A model generated the notes under the pieces. That model searched no databases. It was not told where the DNA came from and saw only the letters and a program-made list of their open reading frames with translations. Position numbers and translations under genes: made by a program. Positions 769-55,310 of a stretch of DNA of 56,386 nt are shown here, piece after piece (the first letter of the stretch is position 1; every line of letters starts with the position of its first letter). The stretch comes from Chromera velia (Eukaryota > Sar > Chromeraceae), in NCBI GenBank assembly GCA_018398765.1, contig JAHBMJ010000002.1:82228-138613 (forward strand). The letters are read 5' to 3'.

Positions 769-1464
769 TTTGAGAAGCAGCTGAGCCTATATATGTGCAG
801 GGTGGCTGAAGACAAAAAGACGTTCAAGACGTCTGGAATTCACTCGACTGCGTGCAGAGGAGACGCCGGTTCTCGAACAGCGACAGAGACAGAGGCACGC
901 TCGGGAAATCGCCACCACCTGTCACAAGCTTCTGTGTGTGAGCTTGCAGTCCCTCAGCCTGTCATGGAAGATTCAGTGTTTTGCTTCAGCACTCAGTAGG
1001 AGCATGTAGGAGCATGTAGGAGCACTCAATTAATATTAATAGTAGAGTCAATACTGGCAGCTGTCAGATCGACTCTCTACTGTCAGCTAGCTCAGTCAAA
1101 CGTTCAGCACTCCGAGCTAAAGTTCTGCATGCATGCACGCTCGCGGGGGCCGGCCCGGCCCCGGCGCGAGCGAGCGCGGCCTCGGGGCCGCGAGAGCCCG
1201 GGTCCAGTTCAACGCAAATTCTTTCTCTTCTCTCCAGCTAAGCTGTCAGAATTTGACTCAGAAAAATTCAGAAAAACCTCAGGAGGACGCCGCTTGCAGT
1301 GACCTGGTCGTGTAAGATGCTGCTTGTCATTAGTCTGGCATTTGCGTGTAAGGTTCACTGAGCGTTGGTCGATTCTGGGCTTTCTGAGTCCGTTGCTCTC
1401 ATTCGATGGTTTCCATCAGAAAAAAACCGTCTCTCCTACTTTTCTGAATCAGTGTGTCACCCCG
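769..1464. other. divergent intergenic region
   Basis: This is shared upstream DNA of the vWA gene (leftward) and the ankyrin gene (rightward). It holds a very GC-rich block at 1139-1205 and, from about 1110 on, is duplicated in inverted orientation at 43.6-43.9 kb. A short ATG at 1318 encodes a hydrophobic dozen residues (MLLVISLAFACK). It could be spliced in phase (AAG|GTTCAC to CAG|TGTGTC at 1450) to the ankyrin frame, which would add a tiny signal-like leader. That intron is speculative. No TATA-like element can be assigned with confidence. Confidence 0.4.
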
Positions 1465-19440: not shown

Positions 19441-21774
19441 TCACGCAGGACCCTGAGGACCGTCTACATGATCTTTACTTACATTCTCCGCCTTCTTTTT
19501 ACTTCTTCTCTTTCTTCTTCTTTTCGGATAGAGCATTTCTCTAAGGTCCTCGAGCCAACAACTAGCCGCCAAGGAATCCTGCCCATAAAGGCGCTTCAAC
19601 ATTGCACAGTCCCCAGTGCAGCGAACTAAGTCGCATGCTCTGAGGCCTTGGTTATTCACCGCGGTCAAGTCAGCCCTTCTGTCAATCAGAATGTCCAGAA
19701 CTTCGGAGTGATCAGTATCATAGTTGCAAATTGCAGCAGCAGCAGCCATGAGGGCTGTGGTCCCTTCCTGATCGACTGTATTCACATCTGCCCCCTTTTC
19801 AAGCAGAGCCCTTACCACATCGGCGTTGCAGCTGTCAGACGCCACAATCAGTGCTGTGCGCCCGTCTGAATCCACCGCATGCACGTCCACTCCTGCTTCA
19901 ATCAGCAGGATAGAGGCACGAGTGCCCCCACGTGCTGCAATCAGAGCTGTACGCCGATTTCGATCGACTGCGTGCAGATCTGCCCCCTTTTCAAGCAGAG
20001 TCCTTATCACATCCGTATGGCCTTTTTCAGACGCCCTGCTGAGCGCAGTGCATCCATCTCCGTCCACCCTATTCACATCTGCCCCCGCTTCAATCAGAAC
20101 TCTGACGCAATCCTTCGCATCAGAGTTGCCTCCCGATCCCGCAATCAGAGCCGTGCGCTGGTCTCGATCGACGGCATGCACGTCTGCCGCCTTCTCAAGC
20201 AGAGTCTCTACTACGGCAGTGTGACCCTGCACAGACGCTGCAATGAGAGCTGTGCGACCGTCTCCGTCCACCCCGTTCACGTCTGCCCCCCCTTCAATTA
20301 GCGCGGCAACACAGCCACCTCTGGCAACGAAGTGCCTACCTGCTACTTTCCGACCAGCGTAGCTCCCACATGCTGCGCTTAGGGCTGTCTGCTGATTGAA
20401 TTTCCGATCGACTGCGTGCAGTGCCACATCTGCTCCACCTTTCAAGAGAACTTTCACCTCTGCTCCACCTTTCAAGAGAACTTTCACCTCTGCTCCACCT
20501 TTCAAGAGATGAGACGCGACAATGAGCGCTGTCCGCCCCTTTGCATCGACTGCAAGCGCATCTGCACCCGCTTCGAGAAGGACATCAGTGCAATCGCCCT
20601 TATGCGACAGTAAAAGAGCTGTGTCTCCATCTCCAGCGACCGCATTCACATCTGCTCCCCCCTCTACAAGTGCTTTGACCACCTGCGTGCGGCTCCTCAT
20701 GGTTGCAGCCATGAGGGCTGTGGTCCATTCCTGATCGACCGCATTCACATCTGCCCCCTTTTCAAGCAGAGCCCTTACCACATCGGCGTTGCAGCTGTCA
20801 GACACCAAAATCAGTGCTGTACGCCCGCCTGAATCCACCGCATGCACGTCCGCTCCCCCCGCGAGGAGGACTCTTATCACGTCGGTACGGCCATTTGCCG
20901 ATGCGTGCAGGAGAGCGGATCGGTTCATGCTTCCACCCTGACGGTTCACATCTGCACCCGCTTCAAGGAGGGCCCGGACTATCTCAGTGTGGCCATTGAC
21001 AGAAGCATAGGAAAGCGAACAACGCCCCCCATCATCAACTGCATTAACACCAATCTCGTTGAGCTTTGTGAGCAGACTGGAGACAGCTTCGGTGTTGCCC
21101 TTCTCAGAAGCCAGCATCAGAGCTGAGGTTCCATGTTTGGAGACTGCGCTCGCATCTGCCCTCTCTGCCCTCGCTTCAAGGAGCACTTTCATCACACTGG
21201 CGCTGTTCTGATCAGCAGCAAAAAGAAGGGCGGAGAAATGACGACTCTCTTCCACCACGTTTGGGCTGGCCCCTGCGCTCAGGAGGGCTTTTGCAACCTC
21301 TGTGTAACCCCCGATCGAAGCCCACATAAGAGCCGTCAGCTGCCACGGGCAGTATGTCCACATATATCGAGAATACTTCACTCGAGAATAAGCCTTCACT
21401 TCAACGCAGGCACCCAAAGAAAGAAGCCGCGTGGTTGCTTCCAGAGACCCCTCCATTGCTGCCAAGTGGAGAGGAGTTAAGAATAAAACGCCGTCTCTGT
21501 TGTGAGTGTTCTCAAGATCAGGTCTCTGCTCACGTGCAAGTCTATATATACCGCCGGGGCCGAGACAAAGCCGCAAATCAGGTCTCTGCCCACCTGCCAG
21601 TCCATTGATGTGACTGCCGAGGCGGAGAAGAAGCAGCAGATCTTCTCCTCTGCCTTCGTCGATTAATGTCTTCACAGATGCGTGGAGCTCACGCGCAGAG
21701 ACGGGCAGAAAAAGCCGTACATTCTTCAACACCATGGGTGTGAGCTGAAACAGGGAAGTGTTTTCTGCTGCCAT
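19441..21774 (-). CDS. ankyrin-repeat protein, about 17 repeats
   Basis: This is a single-exon frame of 777 codons from ATG 21774, chosen because its context (AAGATGG) is Kozak-like and the text after it (MAAENTSLFQLTPMVLKNVR) looks coding. The frame is open further up to 22158 and includes a hydrophobic stretch, so a longer N-terminus from 21930 is possible. After about 60 helical residues come roughly 17 ankyrin repeats of the GRTALIxAS, VVRALLEKGADVNAVD type. The C-terminus ends in a basic patch (PKRRRKRRSKKK), a plausible nuclear localisation signal. Two repeat pairs are nearly identical at DNA level, and one repeat contains a triplicated 30-bp unit, so the array is still changing. Such proteins act as binding scaffolds; no effector domain is attached. 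Confidence 0.85.
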   Translation of the reverse strand: MAAENTSLFQLTPMVLKNVRLFLPVSARELHASVKTLIDEGRGEDLLLLLRLGSHINGLAGGQRPDLRLCLGPGGIYRLAREQRPDLENTHNRDGVLFLTPLHLAAMEGSLEATTRLLSLGACVEVKAYSRVKYSRYMWTYCPWQLTALMWASIGGYTEVAKALLSAGASPNVVEESRHFSALLFAADQNSASVMKVLLEARAERADASAVSKHGTSALMLASEKGNTEAVSSLLTKLNEIGVNAVDDGGRCSLSYASVNGHTEIVRALLEAGADVNRQGGSMNRSALLHASANGRTDVIRVLLAGGADVHAVDSGGRTALILVSDSCNADVVRALLEKGADVNAVDQEWTTALMAATMRSRTQVVKALVEGGADVNAVAGDGDTALLLSHKGDCTDVLLEAGADALAVDAKGRTALIVASHLLKGGAEVKVLLKGGAEVKVLLKGGADVALHAVDRKFNQQTALSAACGSYAGRKVAGRHFVARGGCVAALIEGGADVNGVDGDGRTALIAASVQGHTAVVETLLEKAADVHAVDRDQRTALIAGSGGNSDAKDCVRVLIEAGADVNRVDGDGCTALSRASEKGHTDVIRTLLEKGADLHAVDRNRRTALIAARGGTRASILLIEAGVDVHAVDSDGRTALIVASDSCNADVVRALLEKGADVNTVDQEGTTALMAAAAAICNYDTDHSEVLDILIDRRADLTAVNNQGLRACDLVRCTGDCAMLKRLYGQDSLAASCWLEDLREMLYPKRRRKRRSKKKAENVSKDHVDGPQGPA
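20431..20508 (-). repeat. 30-bp tandem triplication inside the ankyrin gene
   Basis: Two exact 30-bp units and an 18-bp third copy (20431, 20461, 20491) code for VKVLLKGGAE three times in frame. They lengthen one ankyrin repeat by 20 residues without disturbing the frame. This disrupts the normal 33-residue spacing there. Confidence 0.9.
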
Positions 21775-22533
21775 CTTCGTGCTGGATGGTGTCGATTCTC
21801 GTGTAAGAAAAGCCAGGCAGAGCAAGAACAGGGATGTATTGATATCAATAAACCAAGTGGTGAATGGTGAGTCGGCGTGCAAGCGCGAGCCTGTCCGAGA
21901 GATCAGATTTCTTGGATGCACGAGGTGCATGGTTTTGGAGGAGGGTTTGCGATGGCTGCCGAGCCACCAGGCTGAACCGATTATTCGGATAAGCAAGGGA
22001 AAATTAAAGGCTTTCTTGCGTGTCCCCGGGACAGCAACGGTGGACACGCAAAATTGCCCCCGTAAAAGTCGGCTGAGGTGGCTCTTTCTTAGCCTTTCGC
22101 ACGGAGTAATTATCCCGCAAAACACGCTTGGGGGGGCTCTTAATTTCCAAATGGTCATCCGTGGCTACCTATATAAAACCAGGACTTTCGCGGGAAGCTC
22201 GCACGGAGCTGCGCCGGGGACTGCGGCCTGTCGCGCAAAAAATGCAGAAAACCCCTCCGCGCACAGTCGGGGCATGCCGGGCGCCTTGAAAAGTTGAAAA
22301 TTGCTTCTTTCTCTCTCCTCAAAAAATACGTTGACAGCTTGGAACTTGCTTCAATAATTCTGTGAGGAAGCTCAGTGACTCAACTTCCCTGCCAAAGACG
22401 CAGACAGCAAGTCGCAGTCCGAGTGGTAACTTGTAAAAGTCGAATTTGCTTCAGTTATTAATACCTAGGTCCTTCTCCTCCCCCGTCTCCTTCTCTCGCC
22501 GAATACTTGCTGCGTTTTTGTCTGGCATCAGGG
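21775..22533. other. divergent intergenic region
   Basis: This is upstream DNA shared by the ankyrin gene (leftward from 21774) and the gene starting at 22534. An open leftward frame continues to 22158 and may be 5' untranslated or an N-terminal extension. No regulatory motif can be named. Confidence 0.4.
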
Positions 22534-25919: not shown

Positions 25920-27351
25920 TCCTTCCTCGGCCCCCCTCCCTGGGAGGGAGGGAATTTCTTCTTTCTTTAAGTGAGCGTCTGTGTGCACTTCTTTTTCTTG
26001 ATGCATGCCCGTATGTATGTCTCGTTGAGCATACATGGAGTGCGGTGTTGAGTTGATGAATGAATGAATGCACTGGCCATCTGCGTCCATCGAATCGACT
26101 GTGTATGTGTGATGGGGGATTGAGTGAGCGGGTTGTTGAGTGGACGAATGTCGAACCTCCCCTTTTCACTTTCACTGGAGAGTGAGTGAGGGATCTTCCT
26201 GTTGGGTCGGCTGATCTGGTGGGAAAGGATTTAAGACGGTTTTTGTTGCCTCAAGGAGGCTTCAAGAAAATCATGCGAGAACAGGAGGGTCAGAGAAGAT
26301 AGGACACTCAAGGGAAGTAGCCTTGACTCGAAGGAATGGGGGTGGGTTGGGGGGGGGCACTTGGAAGCAGTGACTTTTTTTCACTTTGCGAGCCCGCCCT
26401 TTTTTTGCTTCTTTTTTTGACACTATCGAAGGCAAAAGCCTAGTTGTGGGAAGGAAAAGAGACGCAAAGGGAGAGGAGGCATTCAATTTCATGAAGAAAA
26501 AAAAAAAGAAGCATGTCAGCCTCGTAGTCAGTTTGTGGTGCTTCGGGGTGACGCACGCAAACGAGGCCAGGAGGCCGGACAGAAAGGCAGTCTTTGCGTG
26601 TATCTAAATGAACTCGCGATCGCGACTTCAAGAATGATTATCGAAAGGAAAACAAGTGCGGGGCCGTTTTCGAGATGCAGCCATGGTTTAAAGGCTCCAC
26701 AAGAATCGGCCCTGCTCGCTTGACCTTCTTTGTGATAGCACGCGTCAATAAAGAGCAGAGGCTGACAGGCACGCCTATTTGCCTTCCCTTGTCCCGCAAC
26801 TTGGGGATGCGTCTTGACTTCCTTTCTGTCGGTCTTTCTTCTCTTCTCATCTCGTGCGTTGTCGTTGTGGAGCAGCAGCTCTATTTACATGCATCTATCT
26901 TCAAATGTATGTGCGAGAGAGAGTTCGGGTCGGTCGCCGCTGCTCGTTTCTGCGAATCAACGAGCGATGGCAATCGGCAGAAAAAGGAAAGGAATGAAGT
27001 GGGTGCGTTGCATTCAACCATCCATCCATGCATTTATGCTCCTTCATTCGTCGCCATTCATTCTTCTAACCATGCGCTTTTTTCTTTCTGTCTCCTTCTC
27101 GCGTCTGTCTTGTTCCTTCCTTCTGCTCCCCCTTCTCGTGATTGGATTGATGCACGCCCCTCTTTCTTGATTTGGATTCCTTCCTTCATTTTTGACTCTC
27201 CATCACAAGAGAGATGCAGCCTACTGGGAGGGGAGGGGACTTCCTTTGTCTGCATGTCTGTTTGCATGTCTGTCTGCATGCTTTTGTGCTTGGAGAAACA
27301 ACGCAAGGCTAAATCCACTGCCTGCTGGGCCGTTTGTCGTGTCTACACTTT
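23970..27351. other. gene-poor region rich in TTCC/TTTC tracts
   Basis: No convincing gene was seen on either strand. Pyrimidine-rich sequence dominates, with polymer tracts at 24951-25041 and 25740-25925 and many TGCATGCA palindromes (for example 25160-25185 and 25543-25555). Scattered short open frames read only repeats such as FLSFFLSFF. It could be a long untranslated region or intron of the gene ending at 23969. Confidence 0.5.
24951..25041. repeat. TTCC then TTTC tetranucleotide tract
   Basis: A run of (CTTC)n passes into (TTTC)n, about 90 bp in total. A second tract of the same type is at 25858-25925, with a short TTCC run at 25740-25760. Confidence 0.9.
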
Positions 27352-28135
27352 CGTTCACGAATCAGCATTCAACTGAATGTGCGATGGGTGAACGATCAAA
27401 TGGAGGAAGGCGAAAGGAAAAAACATCGAGATTGAGAGACTAACGTGTTTTGTTCGTTCGTTCTATGTATGTATGTATGTATGTATGTATGTTGATGGAT
27501 GTTGGAGACTTACGTTCACGAATCAGCATTCAACTGAATGTGCGATGGGTGAACGATCAAGTGGAGGAAGGCGAAAGGAAAAAACATCGAGATTGAGAGA
27601 CTCACGTGTTTTGCTTGCTCATTCTATGTCTGTCTGTATGTATGTGTGTTGATGGATGTCGGACACTTACGTTCACGAATCAGCATTCAACTGAATGTGC
27701 GATGGGTGAACGATCAAGTGGAGGAAGGTCGAGTGAAAAAACATCGAGATTAAGAGACTAATGTGTTTTCTCTGCTCGTTCTATGTCTGTCTGTCTGTAT
27801 GTATGTGTGTTGATGGATGTCGGACACTTACGTTCGCGAATCAGCATTCAACTGAATGTGCGATGGGTGAACGAGCAAGTGGAGGAAGGCGAAAGGACAA
27901 AACGTCGAGATTGAGAGACTAATGTGTTTTGTTTGCTCGGTCTATGTATGTATGTATGTATGTATGTTGATGGATGTCGGACACTTACGTTCGCGAATCA
28001 GCATTCAACTGAATGTGCGATGGGTGAACGAGCAAGTGGAGGAAGGTGAAGTGACAAAACATTGAGATTAAGAGACTTTCGTTACGTGTTCTGTATGCTC
28101 ACTCTATGTCTATCTGTCTGTCTGTATGTTGATGC
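27352..28135. repeat. five-copy minisatellite, period about 155-161 bp
   Basis: Copies start at 27352, 27513, 27670, 27831 and 27986 with CGTTC[A/G]CGAATCAGCATTC. Each has a conserved core of about 100 bp (CATTCAACTGAATGTGCGAT, then AGTGGAGGAAGG) followed by a (TATG)n or (TCTG)n microsatellite of different length and a closing TTGATGGATGTCGGACACTT. The core contains the palindrome ATTCAACTGAAT. No frame is conserved through the copies. Confidence 0.9.
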
Positions 28136-30119
28136 ATGCCTGTGATGGAACAGGTAATTGAACGAAAAACAACCGTGCACACACACGCACACAGAAACCC
28201 ACACAGACCAAGCCCGTCTTCATCCACTCATCCAAGGGAAGAATACTAGTAGAACAGAGCGAGTGTCTGAACAGCTCCCCTCCCCGGACGGAATGTCTGA
28301 CACACAGGGGGATCATGAGTGAGATCGCGTATGCATTCATGTGAAGGTTGCGCACACAGCCGCGTGCTTTTGACTTCCTTCGTGCCCTTTCCTTTCTTGG
28401 TGCTTGCATGCACGAAAGGTGTCCTGATGTTAATTCTTCATCAAATCAATTTATCGATCGATTGATTAATGAATCTACCTGAGAAGGGATTAATTCCGGG
28501 CAGAGCTGCTTCCTGCCTGCAATTTATGCTGTCGACTCGAAGTGCATTTAATATGGGGTTGTTCTCCACTTTTCTGTCTTTCTCTCTCACTGTCACCTCT
28601 TCGTACTGCACGAACAGGATGCATGCAGTCGTTTCGATGCTCACTTGTTTGTCAGATGCCATTTTTGTCTTTTAATTCTGCCTGCCTGGCTGTGACCGAC
28701 TGTACGTTGTGAAAGAATTCAGTCCTCGTGAGAGCCCGGGCCGGGCGAGGCTCTGCCTTCTGTCTGTCTTGGGGGGTGCATGGCGGTGCACTGGCAGAGC
28801 TACGACACTGAATCGCTCGGACCGGGTACGTCTCGGATCGGGTGCGCGGACGTCAGATGCGGATCGATCGGTATTTTGCTCCAACCGGTCGTGTCATGCA
28901 GCTATGGGCGTTCTGTGAGGTTCGTAGTGAGACTAGTAAAGATCGGTGCGGACCGTGCGGAGAAAAGAAACTGAACAAAGATCTATATATGATGAGATAC
29001 GTTCACTAGTACGTTCAATTCATCATCATTATCATGCTTAGCATGATACACATGTCTTCGTACCATCAGCTAGGCCATCAACCCATTTCTAGGTTTTCAG
29101 TGTTGCGTGCCACCGTGGTTGTGGGACACGCACGCGGTCTACATTCTCGCTTTGCCGGGCCAGGATTCATATCCAGGGCCGCGCCGGGCGTTTACCGCAT
29201 CCGTCCTTGACCTATCGCGTTCATCCGTTTCGTCCAATGCGTTCGATCAATCGATAAGAGTGACGTACTTTGTCCGGCTTTCGTTCTATTCCTCTATCTA
29301 ACAGTCTTTGGACTCTGAATGACGGCCGAGCCCCGGGTGTACCTCTATACAGTCTTTATGTCTGTTTAGTATCATCATTATGGTACACAACATTCAGCGT
29401 TAGGCAGCAATCAATTTTATTTCCATATCAGTATAGTATAACAACATCAATTCTGAGTATGACATCAATTACTAGTCTAATTTACTAGATCAATCAGTAT
29501 CTGAATAAATTCAATTGTGTAGCAGTAACTAGGACAGAAGGAAGAGATGAAAGACGTATAGGCCAGACGCTAGGAACAAACTTTAAGTCAATGCCCCCCC
29601 GTGTAGCATAATCTAGAGCATAATTTAAAAAACGTCATAAGGAAATTCAATTTGAATACTAGTTTGAATGAAGCGAGGGGTATAGTTAAACCGTGGTTTG
29701 AGAAATTCTAGGAGAAAATTTGAAAAGATATACATGCATGTACATGCATGACTCGCAATATGAGAAGCTAGGGGGCTAACTATCTATGTATGAGCGCCTT
29801 TAAATACCTTTCTCACTCTCTAATTCACTCTTAGGGTATACGTGAATGAATGTGAACGGAACTTGCATGCATGTTATGCATGCTTCGCAGTTGGAAAGAG
29901 CCTACTAGTAAATGGTATGCTCACCAGCTTTTACTGCCTTAATTTAATTCAATTCATGACTTATGAGATGTAATTAAGATATTATAATAAATTAATTTAT
30001 CTGGAAATTTCTTTCATTCATTTTTTTCTTCCAAGTTGTTTTTCGGGGGCACGCTATTCAAGTTCAATGCATGCAGTCTAGCATTCAGTCAATCTAGTAT
30101 TAGGTATAATAGACAAATA
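28136..30119. other. intergenic DNA, no gene recognised
   Basis: Mixed GC up to about 29300, then AT-rich. Short frames on both strands have no coding character. No tRNA, rRNA or transposase signature was seen. Confidence 0.45.
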
Positions 30120-31910: not shown

Positions 31911-32597
31911 CTAATGCAGTCCAGTTGCAAAGAGAAGGGGTACCACCACTGCGGATGCTGTTGCAATCATGGAAGGCGTTGAAAGCATCGGGGCCGCAGA
32001 CTGAGTCGTGTTTGTGGTTGTACCTGTCTCGGCAAAGTACCCCTCTGCCTTCACCCTACAGCCTGCTTCGTCATTCTTTGCAGCAAGCACGTTTTCCTCG
32101 AACCCCCCTTCCATGTTTGGTGTATCTGTTGTGAGAGTGTCTCCTCCCTTGTATCGACATACGAACAGCGTGTCCTTCTTCCCGCACCCAAACGAAGTCA
32201 TCCCTTTCCACACGATGATGGTGAAGTGCCCCGCCTCTTTGACAAACTTCCCCGCGCCCTTCTCGTCTCCGTTCGTGAAGTATTTGTCTTTCTCACTGTA
32301 CCATCCAGCAACTGCGGTGGTGGGAGTGGCATAGTACTTCGCCAGATTCTCCGCAGCCGGACCTTCGCATGGAGGCAAGTCGTATGAATTGGAGTGCTCA
32401 AATTTCTCGCGTTCTGCCCAGTTTTCTGCTGATGCTGCTACACACAAGTCCCAAGGAACCATGTCTACTCCGTGCATGCAACGGTAAGTGTTGTGCGCAA
32501 CGCTGAACTGCTTAATCTCATCCATGGTCATGTTGTAAGCTGTGCCGACGGTGACCAGAAGTGCCGCCAGCGCAGCACGAAAGAGTGGCGTGGCCAT
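31911..32597 (-). CDS. secreted CAP/SCP-domain (PR-1-like) protein
   Basis: A single-exon frame of 228 aa from ATG 32597. Residues 1-20 are a clear signal peptide (ATPLFRAALAALLVTVGTA). Residues about 25-150 match the CAP (SCP/TAPS, PR-1) fold: HNTYRCMHGV, WDLCVAASAENWA, the FEHSN motif, CEGPAAENLA, AVAGWYSEKDKY, then GHFTIIVWKGMTSFGCG and a closing LFVCRY strand. The GHF and FEH histidines with the two acidic residues are the usual CAP cavity ligands. Seven or so Cys residues suggest disulfides. The tail after residue 190 is Thr/Ser-rich and ends in a hydrophobic segment of about 20 residues, compatible with a GPI-anchor signal or a membrane anchor. CAP proteins are extracellular; many bind sterols or lipids. 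It is divergent from the PGGGxFR gene. Confidence 0.9.
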   Translation of the reverse strand: MATPLFRAALAALLVTVGTAYNMTMDEIKQFSVAHNTYRCMHGVDMVPWDLCVAASAENWAEREKFEHSNSYDLPPCEGPAAENLAKYYATPTTAVAGWYSEKDKYFTNGDEKGAGKFVKEAGHFTIIVWKGMTSFGCGKKDTLFVCRYKGGDTLTTDTPNMEGGFEENVLAAKNDEAGCRVKAEGYFAETGTTTNTTQSAAPMLSTPSMIATASAVVVPLLFATGLH

Positions 32598-33509: not shown

Positions 33510-36500
33510 ATGATGTCTACCCGATCGCTGTTGCTGGCACTGCTCGTCGGTGTTGCAGCCGTGAGTGTTCCCCTTGTGCTCCAAGTGAGCGAGAGTGAGA
33601 TCAAAGAATCCCTGAATGTCCGACAGAGGAAGACAGTCACTTTTGACATCACCAACAACGGAGAGGAAGACATCACTTTGAACATCGATCTCGAATCCGG
33701 TGTCTACTCAAAATGGTGGTGGCTGCCCGTGGGCGTCTTCCGCTCTGTTGACTTCTTCAACTTCTGGACGTACTACCTCCCCGGAGGGGGGGTCTTCAGG
33801 TCTCAGCCCTGGCAACCGTCAGTCGACACCCTACCTGCTTCCTTCGATTCTTGTTGCACAAGCAACACTTGAACAACACTGTGTGTTGCTCACTGTTGAA
33901 TCACTCCCTCTATCCCCCCCCCTCCTTGCAGGTTTGTGCCTGGTGGTGGTGTCTTCCGCAACTTTACGTTCATGCCTCCTGGAGGAATCTTCAGGAGCAC
34001 CATGAGCTACCCTTCCACCTTCATGCCCAGCGACATGCCCACCAGCCAGCAGACATGGTTCTTCCCTTCCACTGGCCTCTTCCGCTCCCTCCCCTACTAC
34101 GCCCCCGTCGCTCCCTGGATCGGCGAGGGTGACCTCGTGAATGCCGAGAACACGACTTGGAACGGCTACCCCTTCCTTCCCGGTGGTGGCGTGTGGAGGT
34201 CCACTGACGACTACTGCCCCTGGTGCGGGTTCCTCCCTGGAGGGGGTCTCTTCAGAACTGAAGATAACTTCTGGTACGTCTACCTTCCCGGTGGAGGAAT
34301 CTTCAGATCCGATGGAAGATTCTATGAGCCATTCACCCCTGGTGGAGGCATCTTCAGAAACGATTCCTCTTGCCCCCCCGGAGGCTGCCCCTTTTTCCCT
34401 GGTGGTGGGGTGTTCAAAGGAGACGAGGGGACCTTCGATGAGACCTTCGTGCAGTCGAACGGTTTCGCTTCCGAGGAATTTTTCCCTCAGGGCCTTTTCC
34501 GTAGTTCCGCAGACGGTTTCGGTCTCCCTGTAGGTCTGTTCAGAGAGGAGGAGGGACAGGAAGATACCCTCTTCATGCCTGGAGGCGGACTGTTCCGCAG
34601 TCCCAACGGGTCCGTCCCGTTCCTTCCCGGCGGCGGCATCTTCCGCAACGGCACTGGAGGAGACGTTCCCTTCATTCCCTCTGGTCTTTTCAGGGAGATG
34701 ACTGAAGGAAGCACCTTCCCCGAGTCGTTCGTTCCCATCGGTCTGTTCAGAGACAACAACAGCAACCCCGTGCCCTACTTGCCTATTGGCCTGTTCAGAG
34801 GCAACGAGACAGACTTCCAACCCTTTTCCCCTGTCGGGCTCTTCCGTCAGGCTGATGCCTCCACCTTCCAGCCCTTCATTCCCGGCACCGGACTCTTCAG
34901 AGAGGACAGTGGAGCTTTCTTCCCTCTGTTCCTCCCTGGAGGGGGAGTCTTCAGAAACGACTCCGGCACTGCCTACTATCCCTTTGTGCCCTCCGGCCTC
35001 TTCAGAGACTCCGACGGTGCTGTGTGGGAGACCAACGAAGGGTCATCCTTCTCTCAGCAGGTGGAGGTGGTCGGTGCCTCCGATCTCTCCTCCTGGGCCA
35101 GACTGAAGAGCTCATCCACAGTGTACCTCAGAAAGGGAAAAACCACTACAGTCAGAGTGGAACTCCTCGGCGCTCGTCACGGACAGTTCGGGTCAGTTGG
35201 AAGGAAGAGGGAGAAGCTAGATAGACAGACAAAAAAGGGAGGGGGGGAGTGACAAGAAGGGGGGGGCAACAAATGTTGTCGTCTCCAGTCAGTCTGATAC
35301 AGAATGTTTTCCTGTCGGGTGATGTGGTATTGTTTTCTCGTGTTTCATGATCTTTCTCCTTTGTGTGATTCCATCGTAGAGTGCTCTCTTCCAAACTTCT
35401 CTTCTCCTCTTCTTCTTCTCTGCCTTTTTCATGCAGTGCTGACCTGAAGATCTCCGCTGAGGGCCATGAGACCATCAGCGTCCCCATCAAACTGGACGTC
35501 CACGGCACCCCCCAGGCCGAGTCTCTCCCTGAGGAGATGGATTTCGGCACCCAGGCCGTGCACCAACCCTCCGAGGCCAAGTCCTTCGATATCGGCAACA
35601 AGGGCACCTGGCACAGCAGCAACACCCCCCTCTTCGTGGAGGTCGCCTCTGTGAACAGCGAAAAGGGACACCAGGCAGCCTTCGAGGTCCTCCCCCCCGT
35701 TGGCTCCGTCATCGTCGTAGACTCCTCTTCCAAGATCGAGGACGCGGTCCAGGTCCGGTGCGTTCCCTACGCCTCCGGATCTCTTGAGGCAGAGCTGGTC
35801 TTGAAGACCAACGAGGAAGGAGACGGCATCGGGTCCTCTCTTGAGAAGACACGCACCGTCTCCCTCAAGTGCGCTGGTGCCGAGATGTCCGTCACCCCTG
35901 ACGCCATCGCAGCAGTTGTTGACCCTGACGTTCCTGCAGACGTTGAGGTCTCTCTGCAGAACCTGAAAGTCGAGGGTGACCTCTCCTACACCGCCTTCTT
36001 CCTTCCCGAGGGCGACTACTCTGCCGATGTCGTTTCCTCCTACACCGTCTCTGAGGGGGGGTTTGCCTGGATGGACATCCATGGCCTGTCTGGAGCCAGA
36101 CGTTTGAACAACAACGCCAGGCGACAGCTGCCCTTCCCCGTCAGGACCATGGGAGGCCCTGCAAGCCACGTGAAGATTCTGGAGGACGGAAAGGTCGAAC
36201 TCTACTCTAACGACCCCAACCACTCCACACAGGTCTGTCTGTCCTTGGGGGGTCTTGTGATCACTCAGGTTGAGAGCAGCTGCTAGCTTCTAACTCTCCT
36301 CACCGTCCTCCGAAATACCCCTCTATCCTTCCTCTGTCTACACAGACGTGTTTTCTTCCAGCAGCTTATCGATGTCCTCGACCATGTGAATTCATCAACT
36401 CTCTTCTCTCTCTTTCCCTTGACCGCACATTTGCAGATTCTGGCCCCCTACGCCACCGACTTGAAGCGTCCCGTGTTTGGCAACAGGGACACCGGAATCT

Positions 36501-39123
36501 GGTACATGGAGAGTGAGGATTCTGTGACCGTGCAGTGGGAGAGAATGAAGCTCGGCTACTTCTCTTCCACCGTCATGACCTTCCAGGTGGTCATTCACAA
36601 AGACGGCACTATCAGATTCTTCTATAAACAAATGGACGGAACTGACCAAGTCTGCCTCTCTGACTCCTGCAGCGACAAGCCCTTCATCGGCCTTGCTGTC
36701 GAGTCTGACCACACAAAGGACATCGTCTTTGAACCCACCGCCTCCTTCCCTGCAGAGTTCATGGCTTTCTCCTTCCAGCCCTCAGCCCCCGCAGGCGCCC
36801 TTGAGGTTGTCTTCTCTTCCTCTTCCGGCACCGTCTCACCCGCCTCCTCTGAATCCTCCGCCGTCCAGTCCACCGCATCCGACGATCCTTGCCCCTTCTG
36901 CCCCTTCCTCCCGGGAGGAGGCATCTTCCGTGGCAACGGCTCCGCCCCCTTCATTCCCGGTGGTGGCATCTTCAGAAACGAATCTTCCTGGTCTCCCTTC
37001 CTTCCCGGTGGGGGTGTGTTCAGATCCGAAGAGGAATTCAACCTCCTCTTCGTGCCCCAGGGAGGTGTGTTCAGATCCGATGCATCCACAGGCAACGCAT
37101 GGGACCTTATGGCATTCAACCCTGCTGGGGGTGTCTTTAGAAACGGCACCTACCCCACTCCCTTCCTTCCCGGTGGGGGTGTGTTCCGATTTATGCCCGG
37201 AGGAGGTTTGTTCAGATCGAACGCGTCCGAAGTGTTCATTCCCGGTGGTGGTATCTTCAGACAGGAGGACGGGTCGACGGTCTTCATCCCTCCTGGAGGA
37301 TTGTTCAGATCCAATGACAGCACTCCCTTCATCCCAGGGGGAGGTCTCTTCAGAGGATCCAACGATTCTACTCCCTTCATTCCTGGAGGTCTGTTCAGAT
37401 CCAATAACTCCACTCCCTTTATCCCCGGTGGACTTTTCAGAAACGATTCTGGCACCATCCCCTTTATCCCTGGTGGTCTGTTCCGTGGCAACGAGTCCAT
37501 TCCCTTCATTCCCGGAGGTCTCTTCAGATCCTCCAACGACTCTTCCCCCTTCCTTCCTCCCGGAGGTATCTTCAGAAGCCTTCCCGGAGTGTACACCTTC
37601 TCCCCCAACGGCATCTTCAGAAATGAAGAGAACGGATCCGGCCCCTCGGTGTTCATCCCTCAGGGCGCCTTCAGAGGACTCAGTGGAGAGGAAGTCAACG
37701 AATTCCTTCCCGTCGGTGTGTTCAGAAACGCCTCTTCTGATCCCTTTGTGCCTATCGGCATCTTCAGAGGCTTCGGAGATCAGGGAGAAGAGCAGTTCGT
37801 CCCCTTCGGATTCATCGTCACCCCTGTCGGGTACACCCCTGTGGGTGTGTTCAGAACTGACGGCGCCAACGGACCCTTCGTCCCTGTCGCTCTCTTCAGA
37901 GACCAGGGCACTGCCGGAGCTGCCCCCTTCCTTCCCGCCGGAATCTTCAGAGAGTCCAACGGCGTTCCTGAAGAGTTCATCCCCATCGGACTCTTCAGAG
38001 ATGCCTCCTCTGACGGACCCTATATCCCTGCAGGGCTCTTCAGATCTTCTATGGACCTTGCTCTTGCCAATTTCCCCTATCTCCCTGTGGGCATCTTCAG
38101 AGAGACCCTCGAGGCCTCTCCGTTCCTTCCGATGGGAGTCTTCAGAACAGAGGGAGACTTTTCTTGGCCCTTTGTGCCGTTGGGACTCTTCAGAGGCAAC
38201 GAGACCGGAGACTTCTCTCCCTTCATGCCCACCGGTGTGTTCAGAGAGGAGACTGCTGAGACATTCATCTGGCCCTTCCTCCCCGGCGGGGGCGTTTTCA
38301 GAGACGAGACTGCAGGGACCGTGTCTGGACCCGAGTTCTTTCCCTTCATCCCCGGCACAGGCCTCTTCAGGTACGGCGATCAGTCTCACAGTGCATGCAT
38401 GAATGCATGGATGCACGAACATGTTGCCAGTCAAAGAAGCACTACTTTCAAACGACTAGATCGTTTCCCTATCCATAAAATGAAGTGCTTACCCCCGTGG
38501 CTAACAGCAACGTCCTTTTATTGCCTTTACCCCTTAATTCCCTCCTCCTGTCTTCCTTCTGTGTTTCAACCCCCCCTGCATGCAGGTCCGAGACTGCCGC
38601 CCCCGGTCAGGCTCTCGTGAAGGCCTCCCTGAAGCTCCCTGCTGGGGGTTCCACCGGGTCCGTCTACAGAGGCAAGATCGTCCTCAGAACCTCCGACCCC
38701 TCCGTGCCTGTCGTGGAGGTCCCCGTGGAGATCAAACAGGCTGAGGTGCCTGACATGCCCACCACAACTACCACCACCACGACCACCACCACCACCCCCG
38801 GTGCCTCTACCACTACCACTACTACCACCACAACTGCAGCAGCAGGCGACGCTGTGATCCCCTCCAGCCCCCTGCTTCAGTTCGAGCGCATCCCCGGTGC
38901 CGCCATCAAGGGACACAACCAGGAGGTTGCAGTGACAGCCGACGTGGAGGCCTGTGCTTCTGAGTGCCTGGCTCGGTCCTGGTGCAAGTCCTTCGACTGG
39001 GAGGTGCTCAAGAACGAGTGCAAGATGTCGATGCAGGACAGGTACTCTGTGGGGGAGGGTGGGTTCATCGAGCTTGCTCACGGATGGGTGGACTATTATG
39101 GCAGATACAGAGAGGCTCGTTAA
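33510..39123 (+). CDS. secreted PGGGxFR-repeat protein with Ig-like modules and PAN domain
   Basis: Five exons join in phase: 33510-33817, 33932-35191, 35437-36232, 36437-38370 and 38586-39123, giving 1611 aa. Residues 1-25 are a signal peptide (SLLLALLVGVAAVSV). About residues 26-65 and 490-620 read like Ig-like modules known from bacterial secreted proteins (VTFDITNNGEEDITLNI; MDFGTQAVHQPSEAKSFDI). Array 1 (about residues 72-465) and array 2 (about 940-1435) hold some 21 and 30 copies of a P-x-G-x-FR motif at about 13-18 residue spacing. Between them, TGIWYMESEDSVTVQWERM with FQVVIHKDGTIRFFYK resembles a beta-sandwich found beside such modules. After array 2 come a third Ig-like stretch, a poly-Thr linker and a PAN/Apple domain (about 1530-1607) with its paired Cys. 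The motif itself is new to me. A structural or adhesive surface role is inferred. Confidence 0.88.
33715..35010 (+). repeat. PGGGxFR array 1
   Basis: About 21 motifs, two in exon 1 and nineteen in exon 2. The core runs from full PGGG[VIL]FR to shorter P[VIQS]GLFR forms toward the end. The intron at 33818-33931 falls between motifs, so the array is split at a unit boundary. Confidence 0.9.
36896..38370 (+). repeat. PGGGxFR array 2
   Basis: About 30 motifs in one exon. The first half is dominated by F[IL]PGGG[VIL]FR and FIPGGLFRS; from about 37600 the forms are P[VIAM]G[VIL]FR, and the last two return to PGGGVFR and PGTGLFR. The exon ends inside the last FR codon, which is completed by exon 5. 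Confidence 0.92.
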
Positions 39124-41242: not shown

Positions 41243-41554
41243 NNNNNNNNNNNNNNNNNNNNNNNNNNNNNNNNNNNNNNNNNNNNNNNNNNNNNNNNNN
41301 NNNNNNNNNNNNNNNNNNNNNNNNNNNNNNNNNNNNNNNNNNNNNNNNNNNNNNNNNNNNNNNNNNNNNNNNNNNNNNNNNNNNNNNNNNNNNNNNNNNN
41401 NNNNNNNNNNNNNNNNNNNNNNNNNNNNNNNNNNNNNNNNNNNNNNNNNNNNNNNNNNNNNNNNNNNNNNNNNNNNNNNNNNNNNNNNNNNNNNNNNNNN
41501 NNNNNNNNNNNNNNNNNNNNNNNNNNNNNNNNNNNNNNNNNNNNNNNNNNNNNN
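41243..41554. other. assembly gap (312 N)
   Basis: A run of N is bordered by a 12-base G run on the left (41231-41242, with one short break upstream) and a 15-base G run on the right (41555-41569). The homopolymers look like sequencing or gap-closing artefacts. Confidence 0.98.
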
Positions 41555-41570: not shown

Positions 41571-43900
41571 TTTAACATCGCACACTCCGGAGTGAACTTC
41601 TGTAAAAGAACAGCTAATCCTTTTTTCGTGCTTTAATTTAGCCTTTAAACCATGCGTTAATTAAATACGTGTGGTCCATAATGTGGATGGTGTTTTGATC
41701 TTCTTCGCGGATATATGTCGACGTATGGATTGTCTTTCCAGTTTGCCTCTGTGAAACTCCCTCACCAGCTCTCTCAGCCGTCAATCACACTTACACCCTC
41801 GCATGGAGAAGGGTGCACGGGTTTTCATGCAGCAAATTCAGAAGAAAAAAAAATTCAACGGCCCATCATGTTCAACATACACTCAAGCAGAGCACAGGCT
41901 GCACAGAATATGAAATGCTGTCCAAGCAAAGAGAAACACAGGGAATGATAGCGAGGAGCAAGGAAACCGGTCGTAAGGCTCAGCCTTAGGAAAAAAGGGA
42001 GGCACAAACTGACAAGACAGTTCCGAAGAAACAAAGCACAGGAATTGACGTTCAAGGGTTGACATTTGACTCACAACTTGGGTAGCGCCAGGAAGGAGAC
42101 ATTCATACAGGGGTAAAGTGTAATTCAAACAAAGATCGAAACGTCATGGTCGTCTTCATCATGGACTTGCGGAAGTCATTCACGAATGGATAGACAGATG
42201 AAAGAAAGGCAAATCTTGAATTCAGAACTCGAAGAAATTCAAGCACAGGCGAATCTGCTGGCTGATGGTCCTCGGCAACGTTAAGTGCCGTCCCTACCCC
42301 CCTTTCCCCAGCGCCTATGTCAACCCCAATGGAAACCAAACGCCGTGCAATACGCAGCTTTTTTGCGAAAAGATGTCGTTCGTTCTCTTTTGAATCGAGG
42401 ACGAATGCAACGTAGTGAAGCGCAGTACGCGCAACATTGTCTACTGCAAGGGGGTGAGCACCTCTCGCCAACAAAAGATTGAAGACATTCAGGGTGCCGT
42501 TCCCAGCTGCAACATGAATGACTGTGCGACCCTCTTTATCCCTTGCATGAATATCAGCCCCGCGAGAAATGAGCAACTCTGCAATGTCTCTGAAATCTCT
42601 GCTAGAATCTCTGAGATGCCCCCAATCAATACGAGCAGTACAAAACAGCGGAGTCTGTCCATACTGGTCCCTCTCGTTCACTCTTGCCCCGCGGTTAAGA
42701 AGCAATTGCACCACGTCTTTTCGGCCAAACCTTACTGCTGCAAAGAGAGCGGTATGACCGAATGCGCCCGTGGCATGCACGTTGGCACCCTGCGAGACAA
42801 GAAAATGGACCAGATCTACTGAACCCAATGCGGCGGCAAAATGGAGCGGTGTGACCCCCTTTTCACTGCTTGCCTCTAACTCTGCGCCGCTGCACACGAG
42901 GTACTTTGCAACTTCAGATCTGCCCTTCTTGTAAGCGACATAGAGGGCCCTCATCCCTCCTGAAACCTAAAACTCCAGCGCTGCCCCCGCCCCTACAAGA
43001 ATCTTGACTGCCTCCAGACTTCCAAAGTTGATTGCTCTAATCAACGCTGTCTCTTGAACTTTTTCTATGACTCCTGCCTGTGACTCACCCTGGGGCACCT
43101 CCACGACAGCGTCCACTGCCGCCCCAACCTTCAGGAGAAGCTCGAGGTCTTCCCTCTTCTGCCTCTCCCCTGTATTCATGAAGGCATCGAGAGCCTGAGG
43201 CAGGGTCTCGCCCGTGACTGTCTGGAAGTAGGGGATCACTTTGCGCATTGCGAGGGTAAAAAGCGGCTCCACATCCATCCTGTAGTACAAACTCAGGAGT
43301 GTATTCAACTCTATCCTCACACCCCTCCTCATATCCTCTATCAGTTTTGTAAGTCGGTGAAGAGCAGCCGCCTCCGTCGGAAGCAGCACAGAAGGCGTTT
43401 TGTCATGGAGAAGGTCTGGAGAGGAGACATCTCTTTTGGGCGGGTCGGAAAACTTGACAGCACCCAGGAGATCGTCCATATTCTCCACCAGACCCGCAAC
43501 CTCCCTGAGGCTCTCAGCAAGAGTCCTCAGCCCTTTGCGGACAGGCATAAGACTCGCGGCTGTTCTTTCCCTTCGCACCATCGGGGTGACACACTGATTC
43601 AAAAAATTAAGTAGGAGAAGAGAGACGGTTTTTTTCTGACGGAAACGATCGAATGAGAGCAACGGACTCAGAAAGCCCAGAATCGACCAACGCTCAGTAA
43701 ACCTTACACGCAAATGCCAAACTAATGACAAACAGCATTTTTCACGACCAGGTCACTGCAAGCAGCGTCCTCCAGAAGTTTTCTGAATTTTTCTGACAGC
43801 TTTAATGGCTGGAGAGAAGAGAAAGCATCTGCAATTGTAATGGGCCGGGCTCTCGCGCGCGGCCCCGAGAGCTCCTGCGATGGCGCGCCGCCGCATGCAC
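41571..43900 (-). repeat. inverted duplication, copy B
   Basis: Reverse-complement match to 1110-3500. The match includes the GC-rich upstream block (43840-43900) and the downstream region up to 41571, where it runs directly into the G run and the gap. Confidence 0.85.
42103..43581 (-). pseudogene. ankyrin-repeat protein, copy B, broken by a nonsense codon
   Basis: This is the inverted second copy of the gene at 1465-2862. From ATG 43581 the frame is homologous codon by codon down to 42967, where CTTCAG of copy A is TTTTAG here, giving an in-frame stop just before the ankyrin repeat that starts VSGGMRAL. After the stop the same frame stays open to 42103 through the remaining repeats, with only one in-frame insertion (RDSS near 42595) and scattered substitutions. 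Its C-terminal tail differs from copy A because of a 4-base difference in a TA tract. It may be a recent pseudogene, or it may make a truncated N-terminal protein of about 205 aa. A base-calling error next to the gap region is possible. Confidence 0.75.
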
Positions 43901-46479: not shown

Positions 46480-47418
46480 GTCAGCTTGAGATTCTTTTTT
46501 TGATTGACTTTGCGAGTCGATGTCGTTGGACGCTCATCCATATGCATTTGTGTGTGGACGGGAGGGAATGAGGTTTGCCCGCCTGGCTCTCAGTTTCTTA
46601 TCGCGAGTCTCCGCAACTGCTGTTGCGTTCGCGTCGGTGTGGTCTCTTAGACACCAGACGAGGAATTTGCATTCTCAGCTTGCGTAGTTTACGTGAGCAA
46701 GCAACAGATCCATCAACTGGCCATTCTTCCTTCGGTGATGTGTGGATGAGCGTGAGACCACCAATATTCCCGGAGGAATTCAGTCTTTCTGTCTCGCATG
46801 TCTACCTTTCTGCTTGTCTGCGTGTCTGTCTTGGTACGTATGCATGATCGAGTGCGTGTGTGTGTTGGTGAAAAGTCAGTCGTGAATTTTCGGCGCTAGC
46901 CTCTGCTTTGCATACCGACAGAGACTGCATGCGGCTATGAGCTTCTGTGTCAGAGCTCAGCCTAGGGGGCAGGGGTTGGACCTCGTTTGTATATCGAGGG
47001 GGGGTGGAATGCGGTCTCGGGTTGCACTTCAGAGGGGTCGTTGATTCAGTGATCGTTGGGTTGGGCACGTATGGTTTTGGAAACGGCAGCTGTCTCCTGA
47101 ATTTGTGTCCACTGAGGGGGATAGTGGGTGCGTTCAGACACCCATGCTGCTGTCTGCTCCTTGACTGGTTGTCCACGCAAACCATCGGTCTCTGACTGCA
47201 TGGCCAAAGGATCGACTTAGTGTTGCCCTTCCTTGCAGAACGGAAAAGTAGACCAGTCGAATTAGTGTCCTCCCTCGTATTTAACCTTGTCGCGTATGTA
47301 ATCGTATTTATCAAAACTTCCGAGTCTCCTTATTTCACCTTCTTTTCCTCTCCTTCGACAGTCTTCTCCTTCATTCTCTCTGCGCTCTCTCTTTTCTCTC
47401 TTGTGTTGCTGCGTGCAG

Positions 47419-47489: not shown

Positions 47490-48199
47490 NGATCCATCAA
47501 CTGGCCATGCTTCCTTCGGTAATGTGTGGAATGTGCGTGGGATGCCCATTATTCCCGGAGGAAGTCTTTCTGTCTCGCATGTCTACCTTTCTGCTTGTCT
47601 GCGTGTCTGTCTTGGTACGTGTGCATGATCGAGTGCGTGTGTGTGTTGGTGAAAAGTCAGTCGTGAATTTTCGGCGCTAGCCTCTGCTTTGCATACCGAC
47701 AGAGACTGCATGCGGCTGTGAGCTTCTGTGTCAGAGCTCAGCCTAGGGGGCAGGGGTTGGACCTCGTTTGTATATCGAGGGGGGGTGGAATGCGGTCTCG
47801 GGTTGCACTTCAGAGGGGTCGTTGATTCAGTGATCGTTGGGTTGGGCACGTATGGTTTTGGAAACGGCAGCTGTCTCCTGAATTTGTGTCCACTGAGGGG
47901 GATAGTGGGTGCGTTCAGACACCCATGCTGCTGTCTGCTCCTTGACTGGTTGTCCACGCAAACCATCGGTCTCTGACTGCATGGCCAAAGGATCGACTTA
48001 GTGTTGCCCTTCCTTGCAGAACGGAAAAGTAGACTAGTCGAATTAGTGTCCTCCCTCGTATTTAACCTTGTCGCGTATGTAATCGTATTTATCAAAACTT
48101 CCGAGTCTCCTTATTTCACCTTCTTTTCCTCTCCTTCGACAGTCTTCTCCTTCATTCTCTCTGCGCTCTCTCTTTTCTCTCTTGTGTTGCTGCGTGCAG

Positions 48200-49135: not shown

Positions 49136-50074
49136 GTTAGCTTGAGATTCTTTTTTTGATTGACTTTGCGAGTCGATGTTATTGGACGCTCATTACTTCA
49201 TATGCATGTGTGTGTGGACGGGAGGGAATGAGGTTTGCCCGCCTGGCTCTCAGTTTCTTATCGCGAGTCTCCGCGACTGCTGTTGCGTTCGCGTCGGTGT
49301 GGTCTCTTAGACACCAGACGAGGAATTTGCATTCTCAGCTTTCGTGGTTTACGTGAGCAGGCGACAGATCCATCAACTGGCCATGCTTCCTTCGGTAATG
49401 TGTGGAATGTGCGTGGGATGCCCATTATTCCCGGAGGAAGTCTTTCTGTCTCGCATGTCTACCTTTCTGCTTGTCTGCGTGTCTGTCTTGGTACGTGTGC
49501 ATGATCGAGTGCGTGTGTGTGTTGGTGAAAAGTCAGTCGTGAATTTTCGGCGCTAGCCTCTGCTTTGCATACCGACAGAGACTGCATGCGGCTGTGTGCT
49601 TCTGTATCAGAGCTCAGCCTAGGGGGCAGGGGTTGGACCTCGTTTGTATATCGAGGGGGGGTGGAATGCGGTCTCGGGTTGCACTTCAGAGGGGTCGTTG
49701 ATTCAGTGATCGTTTGGTTGGGCACGTATGGTTTTGGAAACGGCAGCTGTCTCCTGAATTTGTGTCCACTGAGGGGGATTGTGGGTGCGTTCAGACACTC
49801 ATGTTGCTGTCTGCTCCTTGACTGGTTGTCCACGCAAACCATCGGTCTCTGACTGCATGGCCAAAGGATCGACTTAGTGTTGCCCTTCCTTGCAGAACGG
49901 AAAAGTAGACTAGTCGAATTAGTGTTCTCCCTCGTATTTAACCTTGTCGCATGTGTAGTCTTATTTATCAAAACTTGCGAGTCCCCTTATTTAACCTTCT
50001 TTTCCTCTTCCTGGACAACCTTCTCCTTCATGCTCTCTGCTTTCTCTCTCTCTCTCTTGTGTCGCTGCGTGCAG

Positions 50075-54769: not shown

Positions 54770-55310
54770 GTTTACTGTCAGATAGAACGTGTGAAATTCA
54801 TAGAAAGGGCAGGGCTTCGCCGCTCGCACAAGAATAAAGAAAAGTCAAATTCACTCTCAGGTAGAATGCGTAAAATTCATAGAAAGGGCAGGGCTTCGCC
54901 GTTCTCAAAAAAATGAAGAAAAGTCAAATTCACTCTCAGGTAGAATATGTAAAATTCATAGAAAGGGCAGGGCTTCGCCGTTCTGACAAGAATGAAGAAA
55001 AGTCAAATTCACTCTCAGGTAGAATGCGTGAAATTAACAGAAAGGGCAGGGCTTCCGAATCTTCATTCTCACAAGAATAAAGAAAAGTCAAATTTACTCT
55101 CAGGTAGAATGCGTAAAATTCACAGAAAGGGCAGGGCTTCGCCGTTCTCACAAGAATGAAGAAAAGTTAAATTCACTCTCACTGACAGGTAGAATGCGTG
55201 AAATTAACAGAAAAGGCAGGGCTTCACCGTTTGCAGAAGAATAGAGAAAGGTCAAATTCACTTTCAGGTAGAGTGTATAAAATTTATGAAAAGGGCAGAA
55301 GTGGGAACCC
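54770..55310 (-). repeat. seven-copy leader repeat, period about 79-85 bp
   Basis: The string AAAGGGCAGGGCTTCGCCG (with variants) recurs at 54805, 54884, 54963, 55043, 55127, 55212 and 55291. Each is preceded by CTCTCAGGTAGAATGCGT and followed by AAGAATGAAGAAAAGTCAAA. It sits immediately upstream of the gag start, where the 5' untranslated leader of the element is expected. Confidence 0.9.

What the first reader, a model, noticed from the sequence alone, without database searches (positions are those of the whole stretch)
33510..39123. PGGGxFR: a roughly 50-copy repeat I cannot place in any known family
The sequence shows about 51 copies of P-x-G-x-[VIL]-FR at 13-18 residue spacing in a secreted 1611-aa protein with a PAN/Apple C-terminus. 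Hydrophobic, Pro-Gly and FR positions are fixed while the following residues vary, as expected of a solenoid or fibrous repeat under structural constraint. I know of no named repeat with this signature. A surface or wall role is inference.
Basis: partly seen in the sequence, partly recalled or inferred. Interest (0 to 1): 0.88.

Follow-up and report, generated by a model that had tools for sequence, protein, structure and literature searches.

The report
Secreted FR-repeat arrays in Ig-like loops
A secreted protein of a photosynthetic alga, probably a relative of malaria parasites, carries two long arrays of an unnamed short repeat as large insertions in bacterial-type Ig-like domains, and may be a sticky, sugar-bearing coat protein.

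Summary
Five exons at 33510-39123 encode a 1605-aa, probably secreted protein with 51 motifs P-(G)xG-[VIL]-F-R (48 in strict form; shuffles give at most 3). No match to the repeat was found in Pfam, PDB sequences or elsewhere in its genome, nor (array 2 only) in viral, phage, plasmid or prokaryote DNA. (1) There are two arrays, of 21 and 30 units, each lying inside an Ig-like domain: flanks match profiles built only from bacterial Ig/nidogen-like proteins, in order, across each array. (2) The only close relative of its tail found in this genome is a subtilase ending in Ig-like, Thr-rich and PAN parts; the repeat protein has no protease. (3) Spacers are acidic (78 D/E, 1 K/R) and rich in N-glycosylation sequons (22 against 5.6 expected), and 51 of 53 R/K sit in the motif. 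Best reading: a protease-less extracellular scaffold whose two giant loops alternate aromatic/Arg stickers with acidic, glycosylatable spacers for multivalent binding in a wall or coat. The architecture is fairly well supported; the function is inferred, without structure prediction, transcripts or proteomics.

The parts
33510..33566 (+). signal peptide (about aa 1-19, cleavage site not determined)
   Evidence: the only Kyte-Doolittle 19-residue windows above 1.6 start at aa 1-11
33567..33701 (+). first half of Ig-like domain 1 (aa 20-64)
   Evidence: 19.1 bits alone, 26.7 joined to its second half, against a bacterial Ig profile; 0 of 1000 controls with this half shuffled reach 26.7 (max 17.8)
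33705..35021 (+). repeat array 1, 21 units (aa 66-460), crossed by intron 33800-33931
35070..35524 (+). second half of Ig-like domain 1 (aa 477-546), crossed by intron 35192-35436
   Evidence: 8.5 bits at bacterial profile positions 245-318 in the whole protein; 8.5 bits alone against the Ig profile
35504..35884 (+). further region with two cysteines (aa 540-666), related to the tail of the C3795 subtilase; Ig-like nature weak
   Evidence: part of a local alignment scoring 90 against at most 57 in 1000 shuffles; only 8.3 bits against the bacterial Ig profile and 1.4 against the module profile
36047..36868 (+). nidogen-like module and start of the second half of Ig-like domain 3 (aa 721-926), crossed by intron 36233-36436
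   Evidence: 46.3 bits in the whole protein and 52.0 as a piece, against a profile of 75 bacterial sequences
36902..38370 (+). repeat array 2, 30 units (aa 938-1427; the last codon is completed at 38586)
38599..38757 (+). rest of Ig-like domain 3 (aa 1432-1484)
   Evidence: joining it across array 2 raises the profile score from 51.6 to 63.7; 500 shuffles of it give at most 58.7; 6.3 bits on its own in the whole protein
38758..38844 (+). Thr-rich, mucin-like linker (aa 1485-1513)
   Evidence: sequence; also in the C3795 subtilase tail
38872..39123 (+). PAN/Apple domain (aa 1523-1605) and stop codon
   Evidence: PF00024

Best explanation
The gene encodes a secreted, protease-less relative of a subtilase tail: Ig-like domains, a nidogen-like module, a Thr-rich linker and a PAN domain. 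Two arrays of 21 and 30 units are inserted as giant loops into two of the Ig-like domains. Each unit is an aromatic, Pro-Gly-turn 'sticker' ending in a lone Arg (F-[LIV]-P-(G)xG-[VIL]-F-R), followed by a short acidic spacer that carries an N-glycosylation sequon in about two of five units. The Ig/PAN parts would anchor and present the loops. The loops would bind each other or a wall or matrix polymer multivalently, with glycans and acidic residues keeping them soluble and spaced. Shown by sequence: the arrays, their places inside Ig-like domains, kinship to the subtilase tail, and the charge and sequon pattern. Inferred: glycosylation itself, flexibility of the loops, self-association, and the wall or coat location.
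For: Insertion: profiles built without any sequence of this organism match the flanks of each array in consecutive order. Flanks of array 1 joined score 26.7 bits (19.1 and 8.5 apart); 0 of 1000 controls with the first half shuffled reach it (max 17.8). With array 2 cut out the score rises from 51.6 to 63.7, against at most 58.7 with 500 shuffled second halves and at most 56.1 with 500 array pieces. Kinship: PAN alignment score 132 against at most 46, and the region aa 478-668 scores 90 against at most 57, in 1000 shuffles each. S8 stretches of the relative are over Pfam's cut-off, and none of the 36 S8 matches of the genome is on this contig. Pattern: 22 sequons in 49 spacers against 5.6 +/- 2.2 on shuffling the pooled spacers (max 14 in 2000), 20 of the 22 starting 1-3 residues after the Arg; spacers hold 78 D/E and 1 K/R in 443 residues; 51 of 53 R/K of the arrays are the motif residue. 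An STT3 oligosaccharyltransferase gene is present. Secreted, with no second membrane-like stretch.
Against: No structure, expression, localisation or glycan data. The charge-hydropathy index of the arrays (formula recalled) is positive, 0.155 and 0.221, which does not suggest plain disorder. 2P+G is 0.39-0.41, below the value of about 0.6 that I recall for elastomeric proteins. The first half of Ig-like domain 3 adds only 2.6 bits and 5 of 1000 shuffles of it do as well, one control reaching 31.8 against the real 28.4. The middle region aa 539-668 and the relative's Ig-like region match the Ig profile only weakly (8.3 and 13.8 bits, no shuffles run for these). Comparison of the Ig halves with each other was not significant in four tests. 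Pfam's own Ig and NIDO models do not reach their cut-offs on this protein.
Confidence: 0.45

Rival explanations
1. The arrays fold as ordered repeats: each F-x-P-(G)xG-[VIL]-F-R is a short beta hairpin or arc, and units stack into a solenoid or fibrous rod that projects from the Ig scaffold.
For: Hydrophobic positions around the motif and a dominant spacing (39 of 49 spacings 13-19 residues; columns); third-position drift in the core codons; positive fold index.
Against: Unit spacing runs from 9 to 38; the P-to-G gap holds one residue in 28 units and two in 23; spacers show no constant hydrophobic position; no solved structure (profile of 27 two-unit rows) or Pfam repeat matches.
Confidence: 0.3
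2. The arrays are a polyprotein: cleavage after each lone Arg would release about 50 similar peptides, with acidic spacers as in neuropeptide precursors.
For: One Arg (once Lys) per unit, 51 of the 53 R/K of the arrays at that place; acidic spacers.
Against: No dibasic site within the arrays (the four found between aa 66 and 1430 lie in the stretch between them); sequons directly after the Arg would hinder cleavage if glycosylated; the arrays sit inside Ig-like domains, which cleavage would break.
Confidence: 0.08
3. Low-complexity expansions without a specific role, tolerated because they lie in surface loops.
For: They lie within Ig-like domains; no relative of the arrays found elsewhere.
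Against: DNA of the nine-codon unit cores is diverged (mean identity 0.55 to 0.65 by distance) while the motif persists; third-position drift in the core; strict charge and sequon placement.
Confidence: 0.12

Closest known systems
Bacterial secreted proteins with an Ig-like/nidogen-like module (177 found, 80 kept)
   Same: Nidogen-like part followed by the second Ig half; 52.0 bits for the piece and 63.7 with array 2 cut out. In the bacterial proteins the nidogen-like part itself lies between two Ig halves (read in one; an upstream half recognised in 84 of 105 modules), the slot that array 1 holds here.
   Different: No arrays there: 4 motifs in all in the 75 bacterial open frames, at most one each. 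The protein here is eukaryotic, spliced and ends in PAN.
Subtilase (S8) with Ig-like, Thr-rich and PAN tail at C3795:1-3173 of the same genome
   Same: Ig-like region, Thr-rich linker and PAN in the same order
   Different: Has S8 stretches and, in the part read, no arrays; the repeat protein has arrays and a nidogen-like module and no protease. The subtilase reading starts at a contig edge, so its upstream part was not seen.
GLFG/FG nucleoporin repeats (recalled)
   Same: Many spaced Gly-hydrophobic-Phe stickers separated by polar spacers
   Different: Arg follows the Phe, a Pro precedes, spacers are acidic with sequons, and the protein is secreted
Elastin- and resilin-type Pro-Gly repeats (recalled)
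   Same: Pro-Gly-Gly turns in tandem in an extracellular protein
   Different: 2P+G only 0.39-0.41; Phe-rich; sequons; almost no Lys for cross-links
PAN/Apple extracellular proteins of apicomplexans (recalled; some in the listing)
   Same: PAN domain in a secreted protein
   Different: Single PAN at the C-terminus; arrays of this kind are not known to me in that group (recall, not searched)

Membership tests
PAN_1 (PF00024) | score over Pfam's cut-off | tested here: met
   32.6 bits against 21.4
Ig-like domain of the HYDIN/bacterial type | complete domain matching a family profile | tested here: inconclusive
   Own profile of 84 bacterial domains: 26.7 bits for domain 1 with array 1 cut out, 0 of 1000 full shuffles (893 reported, max 7.0) and 0 of 1000 first-half shuffles; Pfam Ig models below cut-off, best E 0.023; first half of domain 3 weak
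Nidogen-like (PF06119) | score over Pfam's cut-off | tested here: not met
   No hit; of the two bacterial relatives scanned, one is over and one below the cut-off of 25 (25.5 and 23.3 bits)
Subtilase (PF00082) | S8 catalytic domain | tested here: not met
   None in the protein; none of the 36 genome matches on its contig
Any Pfam repeat or domain family for the arrays | match of the arrays | tested here: not met
   Only PAN_1 and one sub-threshold match outside the arrays at E up to 1
FG nucleoporins | GLFG/FxFG repeats in a nuclear pore protein | tested here: not met
   FR, not FG; hydrophobic signal-like N-terminus
Elastomeric Pro-Gly repeats | 2P+G of about 0.6 or more (recalled) | tested here: not met
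   0.387 and 0.406
Solenoid repeats | regular stacked fold | not testable with these tools
   Structure prediction switched off

The most novel reading that the evidence does not exclude
A new kind of extracellular sticker-and-spacer polymer: FR stickers alternating with N-glycosylated acidic spacers, grafted as two giant loops into Ig-like domains of a subtilase-tail-like scaffold, condensing outside the cell into wall or adhesive material.
Probability: 0.25. Interest if true: 0.75.

Novelty: new variant of a known kind. Interest (0 to 1): 0.55.

Why it matters
If right, it shows how a module seen in bacterial secreted proteins became an extracellular scaffold in an alga that is probably close to the apicomplexans, without the protease of its relative and with repeat arrays grown inside Ig-like domains. 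It also gives a sequence-defined Phe-Arg repeat with sequon-bearing spacers whose self-association can be tested in a tube, and that could serve as an extracellular material.

Tried and rejected
Other copies of the arrays in the same genome: array 2 and array 1 as protein queries find only this gene (the tool scores only its best candidates). One extra match at C3927 (E 0.027, five stops) holds no motif in the matched stretch and was rejected. A degenerate DNA pattern for GGG[VIM]FR gave 79 forward and 58 reverse places against 45 and 46 for the reversed control; 12 of the listed places lie in this gene, the listing was cut, and the rest of the excess is not explained except that one 17-base word recurs many times in the list. 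C1888 was fetched because two pattern places lie near each other there; one unrelated motif was found.

Common origin of the two arrays: unit order is only weakly alike (112 against 93.8 +/- 11.2; 17 of 300 shuffles reach it), so duplication of a whole array is not shown. Likeness of the Ig halves to each other was not significant. NCBIfam gave nothing for three non-repeat pieces. PDB sequences gave nothing for the joined non-repeat pieces or the repeat profile. Plasmids gave nothing for the non-repeat middle or array 2; phages gave nothing for array 2. Viral contigs were searched with array 2 and genome contigs with a 133-aa piece of array 2, both without a relative; array 1 was not searched in these collections. 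The target's middle found only itself in the genome. The photosystem reaction-centre family PF00124 was not found in the held genome.

Papers: no paper in the library holds PGGGVFR, PGGGIFR, PGGGLFR or PGGLFR. Of PMC4501334 I read passages and one whole section on extracellular proteins. All other papers were seen only in listings with abstract beginnings.

Full report
What is there. The gene at 33510-39123 (+) has five exons with GT..GCAG introns and a continuous frame of 1605 aa. The N-terminus is hydrophobic and no other membrane-like stretch was found, so the protein is probably secreted. The C-terminus is a PAN domain over Pfam's cut-off, preceded by a Thr-rich linker.

The repeat. Fifty-one motifs lie in two arrays of 21 and 30 units. 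The strict motif occurs 48 times, against at most 3 in 1000 shuffles. Among the units so picked, 50 have G, 50 have F and 50 have R; as the motif picked them, this constancy is partly by construction, and at least one degenerate unit (aa 1236) was not counted. Not by construction is the codon pattern: G uses all four codons, R five codons (plus one Lys codon), third positions of G and R differ in 71% and 46% of unit pairs and second positions in at most 4%; the first position of R differs in 32%, by AGA/AGG against CGN; F is nearly always TTC, as elsewhere in the gene. This supports the reading frame and selection on the protein. The gap between P and the last G holds one residue in 28 units and two in 23.

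The spacers. The 49 spacers hold 443 residues, of which 78 are D or E and one is K or R. Of the 53 R/K in the arrays, 51 are the last motif residue. N-x-S/T occurs 22 times in spacers, against 5.6 +/- 2.2 with a maximum of 14 in 2000 shuffles of the pooled spacers; 21 of 49 spacers hold one, and 20 of the 22 begin one to three residues after the Arg. The rest of the protein (715 aa) holds one sequon. The genome has an STT3 oligosaccharyltransferase, so N-glycosylation is possible, but it is not shown.

Where the arrays sit. From 75 of the 80 I built a profile; L077, L081, L112 and L115 were left out because little sequence lies upstream, and L121 by oversight. No sequence of the alga is in it. 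It scores 52.0 bits on aa 661-940, 63.7 when array 2 is cut out and the following Ig half joined, and at most 7.1 on 500 shuffles. The real second half adds 12 bits; 500 shuffled ones give at most 58.7 in total and 500 pieces of array at most 56.1. In the whole protein the match stops at model position 267 before array 2 and resumes at 262 after it (6.3 bits for that piece), so array 2 lies within one Ig-like domain. A second profile was made of bacterial Ig domains with the nidogen-like part cut out, from 84 of 105 modules in which a short pattern recognised an upstream half (21 dropped; several modules per protein). The flanks of array 1 joined score 26.7 bits (19.1 and 8.5 apart). None of 1000 controls with the first half shuffled (max 17.8) and none of 1000 full shuffles (893 reported, max 7.0) reach it. 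Array 1 thus lies between two halves of one Ig-like domain, the slot that in the bacterial proteins holds the nidogen-like part. Against this: the first half of the third Ig-like domain is weak (adds 2.6 bits; 5 of 1000 shuffles do as well), and the middle region aa 539-668 gives only 8.3 bits. The 75 bacterial open frames hold 4 strict motifs in 123,806 aa, never more than one each, so no arrays.

Kin in the same genome. The best other match of the PAN region is at C3795, in a gene whose exons encode subtilase S8 stretches over Pfam's cut-off, an Ig-like region, a Thr-rich linker and PAN. Alignment scores are far above shuffles for PAN (132 against at most 46) and for aa 478-668 (90 against at most 57), 1000 shuffles each. 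A search with that tail returns matches on these two contigs only (5 matches). No S8 match lies on the contig of the repeat protein. The repeat protein is thus a protease-less relative of a subtilase tail; which came first is not known, and the subtilase is seen only from the contig edge on.

Which organism. The genome is 177.8 Mb in 4040 contigs, with 58 light-harvesting (PF00504) matches, exon by exon, and 11 IMCp (alveolin) matches, a family that also rings in one bacterial control. Chromera velia is published at 193.66 Mb in 5953 scaffolds (PMC4501334, passages), which is near but not equal. I think it is probably Chromera velia, but this is inference.

What it does. The pattern of aromatic and Arg stickers with acidic, sequon-bearing spacers on a secreted Ig/PAN scaffold suggests multivalent binding in a wall or coat. 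The alternatives are an ordered solenoid, a peptide precursor, or passive expansion. The data do not settle order against flexibility; composition indices point both ways and structure prediction was off.

Novelty. No named family matches the arrays in Pfam or PDB sequences, none was found for array 2 or a piece of it in viral, prokaryote, phage or plasmid DNA, no other copy was found in the genome by protein search, and no held paper prints the four motif strings searched. Other eukaryote genomes could not be searched. The scaffold and PAN are known kinds. I file it as a new repeat on a known kind of scaffold.

Noticed in passing
31911-32597, minus strand: A CAP/SCP-domain protein (PF00188, E 2.7e-14) with signal-like N-terminus and, by eye, a hydrophobic C-terminus like a GPI signal lies head to head with the repeat gene, about 0.9 kb apart; they may share a promoter region.
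   Followed up: partly
34215-34226, 34371-34388 and 36890-36901 (aa 192/195, 244/249, 934/937): The six cysteines in or at the start of the arrays come in three close pairs (CPWC, CPPGGC, CPFC), each directly before an F-x-P-GGG unit; possible disulfide or cross-link points.
   Followed up: partly
1303-2859 (+) and 42106-43752 (-): Two very similar ankyrin-repeat open frames in opposite orientation near the two ends of the window.
   Followed up: no
19444-22164 (-): A 907-aa open frame of ankyrin repeats.
   Followed up: no
46805-47329, 47586-48110 and 49462-49986 (-): Three copies of a duplicated stretch that hold nearly the same 175-aa open frame.
   Followed up: no
27345-28138 and 54774-55298: Tandem arrays of about 160 bp and 79/164 bp units.
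   Followed up: no
41243-41554: A run of N in the window.
   Followed up: no
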